A DNA stretch of 64,000 nucleotides from Rhodospirillaceae bacterium (GTDB taxonomy: Bacteria; Pseudomonadota; Alphaproteobacteria; Rhodospirillales; JABHCV01), in assembly GCA_018662005.1 (NCBI GenBank), contig JABJHA010000004.1, positions 124,001 to 188,000 of the forward strand, read 5' to 3'. The position numbers were made by a program, and so were the translations under genes. Positions 2,754 through 18,511 of the stretch are shown here, piece after piece (the first letter of the stretch is position 1; each line of letters opens with the position of its first letter). The notes beneath the pieces are model-generated. The model ran no database searches, was not told the origin of the DNA, and saw only the letters and a list, made by a program, of their open reading frames with translations.

Positions 2754-3719
2754 TCAGCTGCTGCCGTCGCCGGTAATTTCGGCATCGCGGATCACACCCA
2801 GATCATCATCAGGGACACCAGCGCCCAGCAGCGGTTTTTGTTTGTGACTCAGGCGGGCAAGCACATCATCAAGCTGGGCCAGATCTGTGTAATGAACGGT
2901 CAGGGAGCCATGGCCGTCTTTAAAGCGAATATCAACTTTCAGGCCAAGCAGGTCCGACATGTCCCGCTCAAGGGCTAAAGTATCGGGGTCTTTCGATACG
3001 GTCCGGGCCGCAGGCTTGCTGCCGCCGGTATTTTCTTTTTTCACCAACTGCTCTGTTTGGCGGACGTTAAGTCCTTGTTTTAAAACGGTTTTTGCCAACG
3101 CAACGGGATCGTTTGCGGTTAAAAGGGCGCGACCGTGTCCGGCGCTCAGCTGCCCGGTATCAATCATCTTCTTAAGCGCGTCCGGCAAGCCCAATAGCCG
3201 CATGGTGTTGGCGACATGACTGCGGCTTTTGCCCATGGCCTTGGCCAGGTCTTCCTGGGTATGGGTGAATTCGTCCATCAGGCGCTGATAGCCCTCTGCC
3301 TCTTCAAGCGGCGACAGGTCCTGTCGTTGCAGGTTTTCGACCAGTGCAATTTCCAGGGTTTCCTGATCGTTCAGGTCCTTGATAATCACCGGCACTTCAT
3401 GCAGCTTGGCCCTTTGCGCCGCTCGCCAGCGCCGCTCACCGGCAATGATCTCGTAAGCGTTTGGCCCCTCTTCGTCGCCAAGACGGCGGACCAGCAAAGG
3501 CTGCAGGATGCCCTTTTCAGATATAGAGCGGCTCAGCTCCTCAATCTGTTCGTCGTCCATAATATGGCGCGGCTGATACTTGCCCGGCTGCAGAAATTCG
3601 ATCGCTATGGTCTTGGTCGAGCGAACCTTGTCGAGAGCGGCATAATCCTCGCCGCCATCACCCAACAATGCCGACAGGCCGCGCCCGAGTTTGCGTTTTT
3701 TATCTTCTGGCGGGGTCAT
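2754..3719 (-). CDS. parB: Chromosome-partitioning protein ParB
   Basis: CTP-dependent DNA clamp that loads at parS and spreads to form the partition complex at the origin. The 321-residue protein has the N-terminal ParA-contact tail RKLGRGLSALLGD (residues 9-21), the CTP-binding motifs GERRWRA (94-100) and ENLQRQDL (128-135), a helix-turn-helix near 154-175, a variable linker and a C-terminal dimer domain. It overlaps parA by 4 bases (ATGA) and is the last gene of the leftward rsmG-parA-parB block. Two perfect parS sites lie 1.5 and 3.4 kb upstream of its start. Confidence 0.97.
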   Translation of the reverse strand: MTPPEDKKRKLGRGLSALLGDGGEDYAALDKVRSTKTIAIEFLQPGKYQPRHIMDDEQIEELSRSISEKGILQPLLVRRLGDEEGPNAYEIIAGERRWRAAQRAKLHEVPVIIKDLNDQETLEIALVENLQRQDLSPLEEAEGYQRLMDEFTHTQEDLAKAMGKSRSHVANTMRLLGLPDALKKMIDTGQLSAGHGRALLTANDPVALAKTVLKQGLNVRQTEQLVKKENTGGSKPAARTVSKDPDTLALERDMSDLLGLKVDIRFKDGHGSLTVHYTDLAQLDDVLARLSHKQKPLLGAGVPDDDLGVIRDAEITGDGSS

Positions 3720-4594
3720 TTCGCCTGCTCCTTACGTTCGCGTCTGATCACTTCCCCGGCCAGATGCAGGTACGCCTGGGAGCCGGCACAGGCCAGATCA
3801 TAAACAAGAACCGGGCGACCGTAAGACGGGGCCTCCGAGATCCGGACATTGCGCGGGATCACCGTGTTGTAGACCTTGTCGCCAAAAAATTCACGGACAT
3901 CACTGGCGACCTGATCAGACAGGTTGTTGCGCTTGTCAAACATGGTCAGGACAATGCCCTGTAATTCCAGATCCGGGTTAAAGCCGTTGCGGATACGCTC
4001 AATTGATTTCATCAGGTGACTGATGCCTTCAAGGGCGAAAAATTCACACTGCAGTGGCACCAGCACCGCTTGCGCCGCAGCCAGGGCGTTGATCGTCAAC
4101 AAGCCCAGGGCAGGCGGGCTATCAATCAGAACATAATCATAGAGGCCGTTCTCTCCGCCCGCGTCGGCGACTGGTGCCAATGCCCGTCGTAAACTGAATT
4201 CACGCCCCTCCACATCGACAAGCTCAATCTCGGCGCCGCTCAAATCCATCCCCGAGGGGACAATGTCAAGGCCCGGAATATCCGTCGGCTGAATGGCTTC
4301 GGCAAGGGTAATCTGTTCCATCACCACATGATAGGTATTGCGGGTGCGGGCCTCCCGACTGACTCCCAGGCCGGTGCTGGCGTTGCCTTGCGGATCAAGG
4401 TCAATAAGCAGGACCTTCTTTTTGATCGCCGCCAGCGCCGTCGCCAGATTTATCGCTGTCGTTGTCTTGCCGACGCCGCCCTTTTGGTTGGCGATGGCAA
4501 TAATGCGCGTCTTGCCGCCTTGCCATCCCAAGGGTGTCGTTGCAGCCGTAGAGTGGGTTTTCGCCGTGTTTTCAGCCATCATGTCAGCCAGCAC
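3716..4594 (-). CDS. parA: Chromosome-partitioning ATPase ParA
   Basis: Walker-type ATPase that binds DNA nonspecifically and moves ParB-parS complexes apart during segregation. It carries the deviant Walker A KGGVGKTTT (residues 38-46 from this start), the LIDLDPQGN motif (63-71) and the VLIDSPPALG segment (155-164). The roughly 25 residues before GGKTRIIAIANQKGG are poorly conserved, so the downstream ATG giving MAENTAK is a possible alternative start. It overlaps rsmG by 11 bases and parB by 4, indicating translational coupling. Confidence 0.96.
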   Translation of the reverse strand: MLADMMAENTAKTHSTAATTPLGWQGGKTRIIAIANQKGGVGKTTTAINLATALAAIKKKVLLIDLDPQGNASTGLGVSREARTRNTYHVVMEQITLAEAIQPTDIPGLDIVPSGMDLSGAEIELVDVEGREFSLRRALAPVADAGGENGLYDYVLIDSPPALGLLTINALAAAQAVLVPLQCEFFALEGISHLMKSIERIRNGFNPDLELQGIVLTMFDKRNNLSDQVASDVREFFGDKVYNTVIPRNVRISEAPSYGRPVLVYDLACAGSQAYLHLAGEVIRRERKEQAK

Positions 4595-5204
4595 GCCTTG
4601 CTATTTTTTCCAATTTGAGGATCGTCCCGGAAGGATCCGTTTGACTCTGGATTTTAGACACCTGCATCATCCAGTTTTTCACCGTAAGGGTCAATTCCTG
4701 ATCGGCTTTTTTGCCCTTCAAAAACAAACAAACCGAACCATCGCCAAGGAACGGTTCGGCCAGGCCTAGTAATTTGTCCAATGGGGCCAGGGCGCGCGCG
4801 GTGACGACATCGACGCAGTCCGGCGCAACCTCTTCAATGCGGCGGCTTTCAAGGCGCACCGTCGCGTCTGTCCCGGTCACCCGCATGGCCTCGGCCAAAA
4901 AGGCGCATTTTCGTCCATCGCTCTCCACCAGCGTCACCTGGGGCCCGCCCATGATCGCCAGCACCAGGCCCGGAAAACCGGCGCCGCTGCCAAAATCCAT
5001 GATCCGACAGTCCGGTTTCGGCAGCAAAGGAAATAGCTGAGCCGAATCAAGCATATGGCGCTGCCACAGGTCGGGGATGGTTGCCGGTCCGACAAGGTTG
5101 ATCTTCTTCTGCCATTTTTCCAAAAGATCCGCATAAAGCTGCAAACGGCCCAGGGTTTCTGCCGTGACGCCGGTCAATTCCTGAAATTGTTTCACGTGAA
5201 ACAT
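4584..5204 (-). CDS. rsmG: 16S rRNA (guanine-527-N7)-methyltransferase RsmG
   Basis: Uses SAM to methylate N7 of G527 in the 530 loop of 16S rRNA; its loss gives low-level streptomycin resistance in several bacteria. The 206-residue length is typical. The SAM site DFGSGAGFPGL lies at residues 70-80. The first codons (MFHVKQ) are themselves encoded by a perfect parS palindrome, so protein and centromere sequences are superimposed here. The start overlaps the mnmG stop by one base and the 3' end overlaps parA. Confidence 0.96.
   Translation of the reverse strand: MFHVKQFQELTGVTAETLGRLQLYADLLEKWQKKINLVGPATIPDLWQRHMLDSAQLFPLLPKPDCRIMDFGSGAGFPGLVLAIMGGPQVTLVESDGRKCAFLAEAMRVTGTDATVRLESRRIEEVAPDCVDVVTARALAPLDKLLGLAEPFLGDGSVCLFLKGKKADQELTLTVKNWMMQVSKIQSQTDPSGTILKLEKIARRAG
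5188..5203. promoter_or_regulatory. parS: parS centromere site 1 (within the rsmG start)
   Basis: The sequence TGTTTCACGTGAAACA is a perfect 16-bp palindrome identical to the widely conserved chromosomal parS consensus. It covers the first codons of rsmG. ParB is encoded about 1.5 kb away and the presumed oriC lies about 12 kb away, both as expected for origin-proximal parS sites. Confidence 0.95.
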
Positions 5205-7149: not shown

Positions 7150-7165
7150 TGTTTCACGTGAAACA
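7150..7165. promoter_or_regulatory. parS: parS centromere site 2 (mnmE-mnmG intergenic)
   Basis: This is a second perfect copy of TGTTTCACGTGAAACA, 1,962 bases from the first. It lies in the 159-base gap between the mnmE stop (7256) and the mnmG start (7096). Apart from parS I see no other clear signal in this gap. Confidence 0.95.
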
Positions 7166-16108: not shown

Positions 16109-17149
16109 TCATTTTCCCCAGCCCTGAATGATGGCGGCCAGTCGTTCAACATGTTCAGGTGGTGTCTCGGGTAGAATTCCGTGCCCCAGATTGAAAATAT
16201 GCGGTCCCCCGGAAAATCCTTCAAGGATGGCGCGGATTTCTTTTTCCATGGACGCGCCGCCGGCAATCAGGGCCATGTTGTCCAGATTGCCCTGGACCGT
16301 ACACAGGGGTTGCAAGTGTTTCGCCGCCCAACTGACCGGAACACTGTTATCAAGACTGACGCCATCAACACCGGTTTGTTTAACAAAATCCTGATACAGG
16401 ATACCGGCGCCTCGCGGAAAGCCCATAACCGGCACGCCGGGACAGGCTTTATTCAGTCTCTTAACAATCTCGGTTGTCGGTTGTGTGACCCAACGCTGAA
16501 ATTGACTTTCACTTAAAACGCCGGCCCAGGTATCGAAAAGCTGAATGACTTCCGCACCGTTCTCAACCTGTTTGATCAGGTAGGCCGATGTCGCCTCGAC
16601 AAGGAGATCAATGAGCTTGCCGAAACCTTCCGGGTCCGCGTAGGCCCAGGTCCGGGCCCGCGGGTAATCTTTCGACCCCTTGCCTTCGACCATATAGGTG
16701 GCAACCGTCCACGGCGCCCCGGCAAAACCGATTAATGTGGTTTGTTCAGAAATTTCAGAAGATAGCCGACTGACGGTTTGATAAACCGGGTCTAGATGAT
16801 CATGCAATCCATCCAGAGACAGTTTTCCTATATCGCCAATAGACCTAACAGGTTCAAGAACCGGTCCTTCACCTTCGCGAAATTCGACTTTTTGGCCAAG
16901 CGCGTCGGGAACCACCAGAATATCACTGAACAGAATCGCCGCATCAAAGTCATATCGCCTGAGCGGCTGCAAGGTTGCCTCGACAGCCAGATCCGGCGAA
17001 TAACAAAAATCAAGGAAGTTTTTAGAATTTTTTCGCAGTTCCCTGTATTCGGGCAGGTAGCGACCGGCCTGGCGCATGAGCCAAAATGGTGGCCTCGTTA
17101 AACTCTCGCCTTTCAGGGCACGAAGAAAATATTTATTTTTTGTATCCAT
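16109..17149 (-). CDS. hemE: Uroporphyrinogen decarboxylase
   Basis: Decarboxylates uroporphyrinogen III to coproporphyrinogen III in heme synthesis. From the ATG at 17149 the product begins [15 protein letters not shown], matching other HemE N-termini, and has 346 residues; the signature [14 protein letters not shown] follows near residue 25. A second ATG at 17182 with an AAGG four bases upstream would add 11 residues and cannot be excluded. The gene is the left border of the presumed chromosome origin, which is the classical hemE position in alphaproteobacteria. Confidence 0.95.
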
Positions 17150-17182
17150 GGTCGGGAACGTAACCGAGATCGCTCTTCTCAT

Positions 17183-17660
17183 ATACCTTAAATATATATT
17201 TTATATAAAAAGGTAGTAGTTGTTGTAGTGGGCTTAAAGTCGGGGATTATTTCTTTTCAACAGGTTTCCCCCAATGCTGCTTTATCAAACGAAAAGATAT
17301 CTGAAATTTGTGGAAAAGGTGTGAGCAATGGCGATGATAAAAAATGGTTACATTTTGACAATCTTCTCCCTGCCTTGAAGCCCTATATAACTTTTACTGT
17401 TGCCTGTTCAGATGGTGGAACGATGATTTAAAAAACCTGAAATAATAATAATATAGGGGAAAACAAATTTGGTTTGCCGTGTTTTCCGGTGTATTCCCCT
17501 ATCATGGAAAACATACAATGCCTTGTATGAGCAATGGCATGAAAACAAGTGGTTCGGGGATGGAAAGATCAGTTTTGTAAATATCCCGAGATGCACACAT
17601 TCTATCCCCAGTGTCGGTTAATGGAATCCGGACACCGGGAAGCGCCGGAAAGAGCGATTG
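17183..17660. other. oriC: Candidate chromosomal replication origin (oriC)
   Basis: A 478-base AT-rich stretch without a credible gene between divergent hemE and ppsR, the known oriC position in Caulobacter and Rickettsia. It opens with a very AT-rich run (17181-17213) suited to unwinding. DnaA-box-like 9-mers include TTTTCCACA on the minus strand at 17309-17317 (fits TTWTNCACA), TTTTCAACA at 17254-17262 and CTATCCCCA at 17602-17610 (one or two mismatches). TGTTTTCC or its complement occurs three times (17458-17465, 17480-17487, 17506-17513). ATAGGGGAA/TTCCCCTAT (17453-17461/17494-17502) and CATACAA/TTGTATG (17512-17518/17523-17529) are inverted repeats; GAGCAATGGC is repeated directly (17323, 17529). 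Confidence 0.85.
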
Positions 17661-18485
17661 ATGGTCAGTAAACATTTTCATTTACATCTGGTTTCAGACG
17701 CCACAGGCGAAACCGTCAATCTGGTGGCGCGCGCCACCCTGGTGCAATTCGATAATATTGAACAAACCGAACATGTCTGGAATATGGTCCGCAGCGAAGG
17801 TCAGATCAGGGATATCATTGAAGGGGTAAAGGAAAATCCCGGATTCGTGCTGTACACCCTTGTCGACAATGAAATGCGAACCATGCTGGAAAACAGCTGC
17901 CGGGAACTAAAGGTCCCCTGCATCCCCATTCTTGATCCGGTGGTTAATGCCTTGGGATCATATCTTAAGGCGGAAATTCAGGCAGCACCCGGGCGTCAGC
18001 ATGTTATGGACGCGGAATACTTTGCCCGTATAGAGGCCTTGCATTTTGTTCTCAGCCACGATGACGGCCAGGCGACCCGCTCGCTTAACGAGGCCGATGT
18101 GATCATCGTCGGGGTTTCCAGGACCTCCAAAACACCAACCTGTATTTACCTCGCCAACAGGGGCCTGAAAGCCGCCAATGTCCCCATTGTTCCGGGCTGC
18201 GCCCTGCCTCCGGAATTGTTGCAGTCAAAAAAACCACTGGTTGTTGGCCTGACAAATGATCCCAGGCAGTTGGTGCAAATCCGGCGCAATCGCTTACGCT
18301 CATTGGGCCAGGACGAAGAAACCGATTACATTGATCCCGAAACGGTTTCCAGTGAGGTCAGGGAAGCCAAGCGCCTTTACGCAAATCAGGGCTGGCCGGT
18401 GATCGATGTGACCCGAAAATCCATTGAAGAAGTTTCGGCAAAGATCCTGCAGCTTTATAACCGACGCCTTGATCAACATTCCTGA
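17661..18485 (+). CDS. ppsR: Pyruvate, phosphate dikinase regulatory protein-like kinase/phosphorylase (DUF299; RP001 homologue)
   Basis: Member of the family of bifunctional serine/threonine kinase and Pi-dependent phosphorylases that switch PEP synthase or pyruvate, phosphate dikinase on and off with ADP. The 274-residue protein starts MVSKHFHLHLVSDATGET, the family hallmark, and has a P-loop-like GVSRTSKT at residues 151-158. The start is the ATG at 17661 rather than the TTG three bases earlier. Which enzyme it controls cannot be told, since neither target gene is in the window. It borders the candidate oriC. Confidence 0.92.
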   Translation: MVSKHFHLHLVSDATGETVNLVARATLVQFDNIEQTEHVWNMVRSEGQIRDIIEGVKENPGFVLYTLVDNEMRTMLENSCRELKVPCIPILDPVVNALGSYLKAEIQAAPGRQHVMDAEYFARIEALHFVLSHDDGQATRSLNEADVIIVGVSRTSKTPTCIYLANRGLKAANVPIVPGCALPPELLQSKKPLVVGLTNDPRQLVQIRRNRLRSLGQDEETDYIDPETVSSEVREAKRLYANQGWPVIDVTRKSIEEVSAKILQLYNRRLDQHS

Positions 18486-18511
18486 AGGGTGTGAAGGGAA
18501 GAGCCAGCATC

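What the first reader, a model, noticed from the sequence alone, without database searches (positions are those of the whole stretch)
17183..17660. Probable chromosomal oriC between hemE and ppsR
Seen: an AT-rich 478-base gap without a credible gene, divergent flanks, DnaA-box-like 9-mers (TTTTCCACA at 17309-17317 on the minus strand; looser ones at 17254 and 17602) and an AT run at 17181-17213. Known: in Caulobacter and Rickettsia oriC lies between hemE and RP001 (ppsR). Inference: this is the origin of this chromosome, with parS sites about 10-12 kb away.
Basis: partly seen in the sequence, partly recalled or inferred. Interest (0 to 1): 0.75.

Follow-up and report, generated by a model that had tools for sequence, protein, structure and literature searches.

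The report
Chromosome replication origin, variant unwinding module
This gap between two genes is very probably where this alphaproteobacterium starts copying its chromosome, and it carries a repeat that looks like the known DnaA opening signal but with a looser middle letter in each unit.

Summary
The gap (about 17150-17660) lies between hemE and ppsR. On the 394-kb contig the cumulative GC-skew minimum is 5.2 kb away, and 17181-17211 is the least stable 30-step duplex stretch. In a one-contig relative the skew flips at the same gene pair and again near its antipode; dnaA fits worse. 83 distinct gaps from relatives hold 196 near-consensus DnaA boxes against 8.4 expected. In this window alone the boxes are not denser than background.

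Such runs occur in 48 of 58 non-rhizobial gaps; the middle base is A 114, T 81, G 23, C 0. In B. subtilis A or C works there, and T or G impairs. The DnaA residue that reads that base (Asn187) is Tyr 56, His 1, Phe 1 in 58 alphaproteobacterial DnaA proteins, but it varies elsewhere too. The window fails the published BUS rule at this place (a same-genus relative meets it), so I call it BUS-like, a variant. Binding, unwinding and initiation were not tested.

The parts
17150..17660 (.). oriC interval between the hemE and ppsR start codons
   Evidence: ORFs and Pfam; skew vertex; pooled DnaA boxes in 83 distinct gaps of relatives
17181..17211 (.). AT-rich DNA unwinding element
   Evidence: least stable site of the 394-kb contig over 30 and 40 dinucleotide steps; sixth site over 60 steps (nearest-neighbour energies recalled)
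17214..17231 (+). DnaA-trio-like run TAG TAG TTG TTG TAG TGG; the + strand would be the single strand held by DnaA
   Evidence: only run of five T[AT]G in the 394-kb contig, both strands; conserved in relatives
17241..17249 (-). weak DnaA box next to the run: TAATCCCCG on the minus strand, like the Caulobacter W-box; 9-base spacer 17232-17240
   Evidence: G[GT]GGAT within 30 bases of the run in 45 of 48 loci, at 13-15 bases in 36; sequence checked
17254..17262 (+). DnaA-box-like TTTTCAACA (2 mismatches)
   Evidence: chance not excluded
17309..17317 (-). DnaA-box-like TTTTCCACA (1 mismatch), the best box of the gap
   Evidence: TTWTCCACA is 47 against 0.8 expected over the 83 gaps
17602..17610 (+). 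DnaA-box-like CTATCCCCA, holding a W-box core TCCCCA at 17605-17610
16109..17149 (-). hemE, left boundary gene
   Evidence: Pfam URO-D 5.3e-122
17661..18485 (+). ppsR (COG1806/DUF299 homologue), right boundary gene
   Evidence: Pfam Kinase-PPPase 2.4e-96
7150..7165 (.). parS, exact
5188..5203 (.). parS, exact
2754..4594 (-). parB and parA, origin-segregation genes
   Evidence: ORFs; Pfam ParB_N, HTH_ParB, AAA_31

Best explanation
The gap is the chromosomal origin, oriC. Proposed working: ATP-bound DnaA occupies weak boxes, including the W-type box at 17241-17249. From there a DnaA filament extends toward hemE onto the + strand of the triplet run 17214-17231, and opens the least stable tract 17181-17211 for helicase loading. 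The ParB-bound parS sites 10-12 kb away would then move the new origin. Shown here: the location (skew, synteny), the unstable tract, and the conservation, order and polarity of the module. Inferred: DnaA binding, strand opening and initiation. The triplets differ from the described DnaA-trio in that the middle base is A, T or G, so this DnaA must tolerate or read that base differently from B. subtilis DnaA.
For: Skew minimum 5.2 kb away on a 394-kb contig; none of 2000 block shuffles reached the change-point statistic. In one-contig relative G020 (3,832,570 bases) hemE-ppsR lies at about 3.42 Mb; skew is positive in 7 of 7 samples from 0.095 to 1.235 Mb, near 0 at 1.425 Mb, negative in 9 of 10 samples from 1.615 to 3.325 Mb, and -0.044 to +0.108 across the gene pair, so the second switch (1.43-1.62 Mb) sits at the antipode, 1.51 Mb, while dnaA at position 1 would put it at 1.92 Mb. 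hemE and ppsR are divergent neighbours in 89 of 93 loci. Boxes with up to 1 mismatch: 196 against 8.4 expected in 83 distinct gaps. Least stable duplex of the contig. Module unique in the contig. In 34 long non-rhizobial loci the module pattern occurs 17 times in the gap, always on the + strand, and once in 640,174 bases outside; reversed-order and T[ATC]C controls 0 and 0.
Against: The window's own DnaA-box count is ordinary and there is no exact box. One of three change-point fits misses the gap (156 kb, 146-167), and the cumulative skew falls again beyond about 342 kb. In G020 the sample at 3.515 Mb is -0.023 where positive is expected and that at 2.755 Mb is +0.003, and its own gap shows no run by my pattern. 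No strict CtrA or IHF site. The run is absent, by my threshold, from 10 of 58 non-rhizobial and all 25 rhizobial gaps; only 6 of 22 class-wide gaps reach score 4.
Confidence: 0.85

Rival explanations
1. The origin lies at dnaA, C4:244,491-245,906, 103 kb away, as in many bacteria.
For: dnaA is on the same contig. One box with 1 mismatch precedes it and one follows.
Against: Skew does not turn there; none of the three change-point intervals reaches 244 kb. The relative's second skew switch fits hemE-ppsR and not dnaA.
Confidence: 0.03
2. It is an origin, but the TNG run is not a DnaA-trio: it is a single-strand DUE motif of the E. coli kind (TTGT-like) or a site for another origin-binding protein, fixed for a different reason.
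For: TTG and TGG units depart from the published NAN trio rule, and thymine or guanine in the middle impairs B. subtilis. Rhizobial gaps have a different fixed block in its place.
Against: Order, polarity, three-base phase, spacing of 9 or 12 bases and the adjoining weak box match the BUS; the published spacer peak is 10-13 bases. Same-genus L019 meets the box-spacer-trio rule at this very place with four NAN units.
Confidence: 0.25
3. The gap is only a long hemE/ppsR double promoter and its conservation is regulatory.
For: Divergent genes share it.
Against: Skew vertex, minimum duplex stability, pooled DnaA boxes and near parS.
Confidence: 0.03

Closest known systems
Caulobacter crescentus Cori and the hemE/COG1806 origins of Rickettsia (PMC1914354, PMC4468827, PMC4285127; passages read)
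   Same: Same flanking genes, similar length, AT-rich tract, weak DnaA boxes including TCCCCA-type W-boxes
   Different: No strict TTAA-N7-TTAA CtrA site and no WATCAN5WTR IHF site in the gap; no TGATCCACA G-box
Basal unwinding system (BUS) with DnaA-trios, B. subtilis (PMC8287927 section 13 and part 1 of section 14; PMC10721633 passages)
   Same: Box, spacer, three-base repeats, AT-rich tract, in that order and polarity; guanine and thymine of the 3'-GNT-5' unit kept; DnaA residue Glu228 kept and Arg202 replaced by Lys
   Different: Middle base A, T or G, not A; the adjoining box has 3 mismatches; DnaA Asn187 is Tyr
E. coli oriC putative trios, KAK-boxes (PMC13220808, passages)
   Same: Triplets beside the DUE
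   Different: There the middle base is A; here T and G occur too

Membership tests
hemE-COG1806 (Cori-type) alphaproteobacterial oriC | flanked by hemE and COG1806/ppsR | tested here: met
   89 of 93 loci of relatives
hemE-COG1806 (Cori-type) alphaproteobacterial oriC | shift in GC skew | tested here: met
   relative G020
hemE-COG1806 (Cori-type) alphaproteobacterial oriC | AT-rich, easily opened tract | tested here: met
hemE-COG1806 (Cori-type) alphaproteobacterial oriC | cluster of DnaA boxes | tested here: inconclusive
   pooled relatives strongly enriched; this gap alone ordinary; weak boxes are usual in Cori (passages)
hemE-COG1806 (Cori-type) alphaproteobacterial oriC | CtrA (TTAA-N7-TTAA) and IHF (WATCAN5WTR) sites | tested here: not met
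   0 and 0 in the gap; two loose TTWW-N7-TTWW matches. [quoted passage not shown]
hemE-COG1806 (Cori-type) alphaproteobacterial oriC | replication starts here | not testable with these tools
   needs marker frequency or a plasmid assay
BUS (published search rule) | DnaA box with up to 2 mismatches, 0-16 bases from the trios | tested here: not met
   TAATCCCCG has 3 mismatches; met by same-genus L019, TAATCCCCA, at the same place
BUS (published search rule) | at least three NAN triplets in a row | tested here: not met
   TAG TAG TTG TTG TAG TGG has at most two in a row. The rule's first step, as I coded it, finds only two other three-unit candidates in this gap
BUS (published search rule) | order and polarity box, spacer, repeats, AT-rich tract | tested here: met
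BUS (published search rule) | DnaA-dependent strand separation needing both elements | not testable with these tools
   needs purified DnaA

The most novel reading that the evidence does not exclude
Much of this order (and scattered other Alphaproteobacteria) opens its origin with a relaxed DnaA-trio, 3'-G-D-T-5' (D = A, T or G, almost never C). An aromatic residue (Tyr) in place of Asn187 stacks on the flipped middle base instead of reading its amino group, so sequence reading rests on the guanine and thymine. This would be the reverse of the B. subtilis preference (A or C over T or G).
Probability: 0.4. Interest if true: 0.65.

Novelty: new variant of a known kind. Interest (0 to 1): 0.4.

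Why it matters
The origin itself is where textbook synteny predicts. The module gives a natural test of an open point: how DnaA homologues choose single-stranded origin DNA. The 2023 BUS paper raises the possibility that homologues recognise other sequences (passages). Here a lineage keeps the guanine and thymine of the trio and relaxes the base whose reader residue has changed. If the run works as a trio, the published NAN rule misses origins of this kind, and the rule can be mended and tested with one purified DnaA.

Tried and rejected
DnaA-box density as proof: rejected, since this gap alone is ordinary. CtrA, IHF and GANTC sites: none strict, none strict, and one GANTC in the gap against 1.96 per kb in the contig. 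RNA family or tRNA in the window: none at the gathering score and none. Published BUS rule on the gap: finds two other three-unit candidates, not this module. Idea that Asn187 to Tyr alone explains the middle base: weakened, because other Pseudomonadota also lack Asn there. Of 12 non-alphaproteobacterial DnaA proteins 5 have Ala, 3 Thr, 2 Gln, 1 Ser, 1 Asn; of 8 divergent alphaproteobacterial ones 3 have Tyr, 2 His, 1 Phe, 1 Trp, 1 Ser. The Fisher value for missing C treats triplets as independent, which they are not; I rely on the counts, and on 20 loci out of a hand-picked list of 21, about one per family (A 42, T 35, G 11, C 0). The run threshold and pattern were set after seeing the alignment. 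Cluster of paper searches for trios in Alphaproteobacteria: 'DnaA-trio' with 'alphaproteobacteria' gave 1 paper, an epsilonproteobacterial one, seen as a listing; with 'Caulobacter' 16, most seen as a listing only.

Full report
What is there. The window is G000:C4:124001-188000, in a genome of 3,507,256 bases in 53 contigs. The closest named records that hold its ppsR (95% and 87% identity) are metagenome-assembled Rhodospirillaceae/Rhodospirillales. Between hemE (minus, Pfam URO-D, start probably 17149) and ppsR (plus, Pfam Kinase-PPPase, start 17661) lies a gap of about 511 bases with no credible gene. To the left lie hemH, rho, mnmE, gidA, gidB, parA and parB; to the right aroE and coaE (hemH named from the tblastn query and gene order, not from Pfam).

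Is it the origin? I took the whole 394,017-base contig. Cumulative G-C has its minimum at 135,943; the gap is at 141,183-141,660. GC skew in the 141 kb on either side is -0.020 on the left and +0.031 on the right. A single change point falls at 137 kb (bootstrap 120-155) on the full contig, at 141 kb (131-148) on its first 342 kb, and at 156 kb (146-167) on 40-300 kb; the last misses the gap. None of 2000 block shuffles reached the observed statistic in any of the three. Beyond about 342 kb the cumulative skew falls slightly, which I do not explain.

A chromosome-scale check used relative G020, one contig of 3,832,570 bases, sampled at 20 stretches of 20 kb. Skew is positive in 7 of 7 samples from 0.095 to 1.235 Mb, -0.001 at 1.425 Mb, negative in 9 of 10 samples from 1.615 to 3.325 Mb (the tenth, 2.755 Mb, is +0.003), and changes from -0.044 to +0.108 across the hemE-ppsR pair at 3.42 Mb. 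The sample at 3.515 Mb is -0.023, against expectation. The second switch, between 1.43 and 1.62 Mb, brackets the antipode of hemE-ppsR (1.51 Mb). dnaA is at position 1; its antipode is 1.92 Mb. In the window's own genome dnaA is 103 kb from the gap and outside all three intervals.

Stability. With recalled nearest-neighbour energies, the stretch starting at 17181 is the least stable of the contig over 30 and over 40 dinucleotide steps, and the sixth site over 60.

DnaA boxes. Of 93 loci of relatives, 89 have divergent neighbouring hemE and ppsR. I dropped 10 (4 without hemE, 6 with a gap already in the set), leaving 83 distinct gaps, the window's own among them. They hold 22 exact boxes (0.25 expected), 196 with up to 1 mismatch (8.4 expected) and 508 with up to 2 (113 expected). 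ATCCCC, the core of Caulobacter W-boxes and of the box beside the run, is 131 against 33; TTATCCCCA 21 against 0.7. In the window alone there is one box with 1 mismatch and three with up to 2; 9% and 12% of 511-base windows of the contig match that. ATCCCC occurs three times in the gap against 0.50 expected.

The module. Aligned gaps show a fixed block at the hemE side: AT-rich tract, AGG, five or six TNG triplets, about 13 bases, then GGGGAT. In the window it reads TAG TAG TTG TTG TAG TGG at 17214-17231 and CGGGGATTA at 17241-17249. It is the only run of five T[AT]G in the contig. A pattern drawn from it, AGGTAGTAGTNGTNGTNG with up to 1 mismatch, has one match in the whole genome (the backward control has five). 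Runs at my threshold are in 48 of 58 non-rhizobial gaps and in none of 25 rhizobial ones. In a class-wide sample ppsR was found in 30 of 58 genomes; of 28 new loci 22 had an intact hemE-ppsR gap, and 6 of those reach score 4. G020's own gap has no match to my pattern. In 34 long non-rhizobial loci the stricter pattern occurs 17 times in the gap, all on the + strand, and once in 640,174 bases outside; two control patterns give 0 in both. G[GT]GGAT follows the run within 30 bases in 45 of 48 loci, at 13-15 bases in 36.

Order and polarity equal those of the B. subtilis BUS. Read on the minus strand: a DnaA box, a spacer, CTA/CAA units, the AT-rich tract; the plus strand then reads 3'-GAT/GTT-5' away from the box. 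The published rule asks for a box with up to 2 mismatches, 0-16 bases and at least three NAN units (PMC8287927, section 13 read). The window's box has 3 mismatches and its run at most two A-centred units in a row, so this place is not a BUS by that rule. The first step of the rule, as I coded it, finds only two other weak candidates in the gap. L019, from a same-genus genome (G003), does meet it at the homologous place: TAATCCCCA, 9 bases, CTACTACTGCTA.

The middle base. Over 48 loci the 218 TNG triplets have A 114, T 81, G 23, C 0; TNG elsewhere in the same gaps has G 338, T 322, C 298, A 143. 15 off-pattern triplets inside the runs were not counted. 41 of 48 loci have a T-centred and 19 a G-centred unit. 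In B. subtilis cytosine replaces adenine well, thymine and guanine poorly, because Asn187 contacts an amino group; Arg202 and Glu228 hold the guanine (PMC10721633, passages). Aligned to the B. subtilis chain 8btg, the window organism's DnaA has Tyr213 at Asn187, Lys at Arg202, Glu at Glu228 and Gln at Asn196. In 58 alphaproteobacterial DnaA loci (those returned as best matches in two searches, so leaning to close ones) the Asn187 position is Tyr 56, His 1, Phe 1; Arg202 is Lys in 58 and Glu228 is Glu in 58. Eight more divergent ones have Tyr 3, His 2, Phe 1, Trp 1, Ser 1. Twelve from other classes have Ala 5, Thr 3, Gln 2, Ser 1, Asn 1. So Asn is not general, and the tie between Tyr and the relaxed base is a lead, not proof; I did not measure the trio of the Ala, Thr or Gln groups.

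Verdict. oriC: very likely, of a known kind, at the expected place. New here: the lineage-wide BUS-like module with a relaxed middle base. Overall confidence of 0.85 covers location and the DnaA-led mechanism together; for location alone I would say 0.95, for the trio-like working about 0.7.

Noticed in passing
L054-L070, L072-L079 (rhizobial hemE-ppsR gaps): Instead of the TNG run, 23 of 25 rhizobial gaps share the exact block GGTTTCTATTTCTTAGAGTCGGTG; 0 of 58 others have it. Its function is unknown to me.
   Followed up: partly
18485-18491: ppsR and aroE are directly adjacent here and in the closest relatives (L018-L020, L085), while most others have room for one more gene between them (maf, label recalled).
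   Followed up: no
G000:C4 from about 342 kb on: The cumulative GC skew turns down again some 200 kb right of the origin, too near to be the terminus; perhaps an inversion or insertion.
   Followed up: no
G000:C4:244491-245906 (L115): dnaA, followed by a dnaN-like ORF (name recalled), lies 103 kb from the origin.
   Followed up: partly
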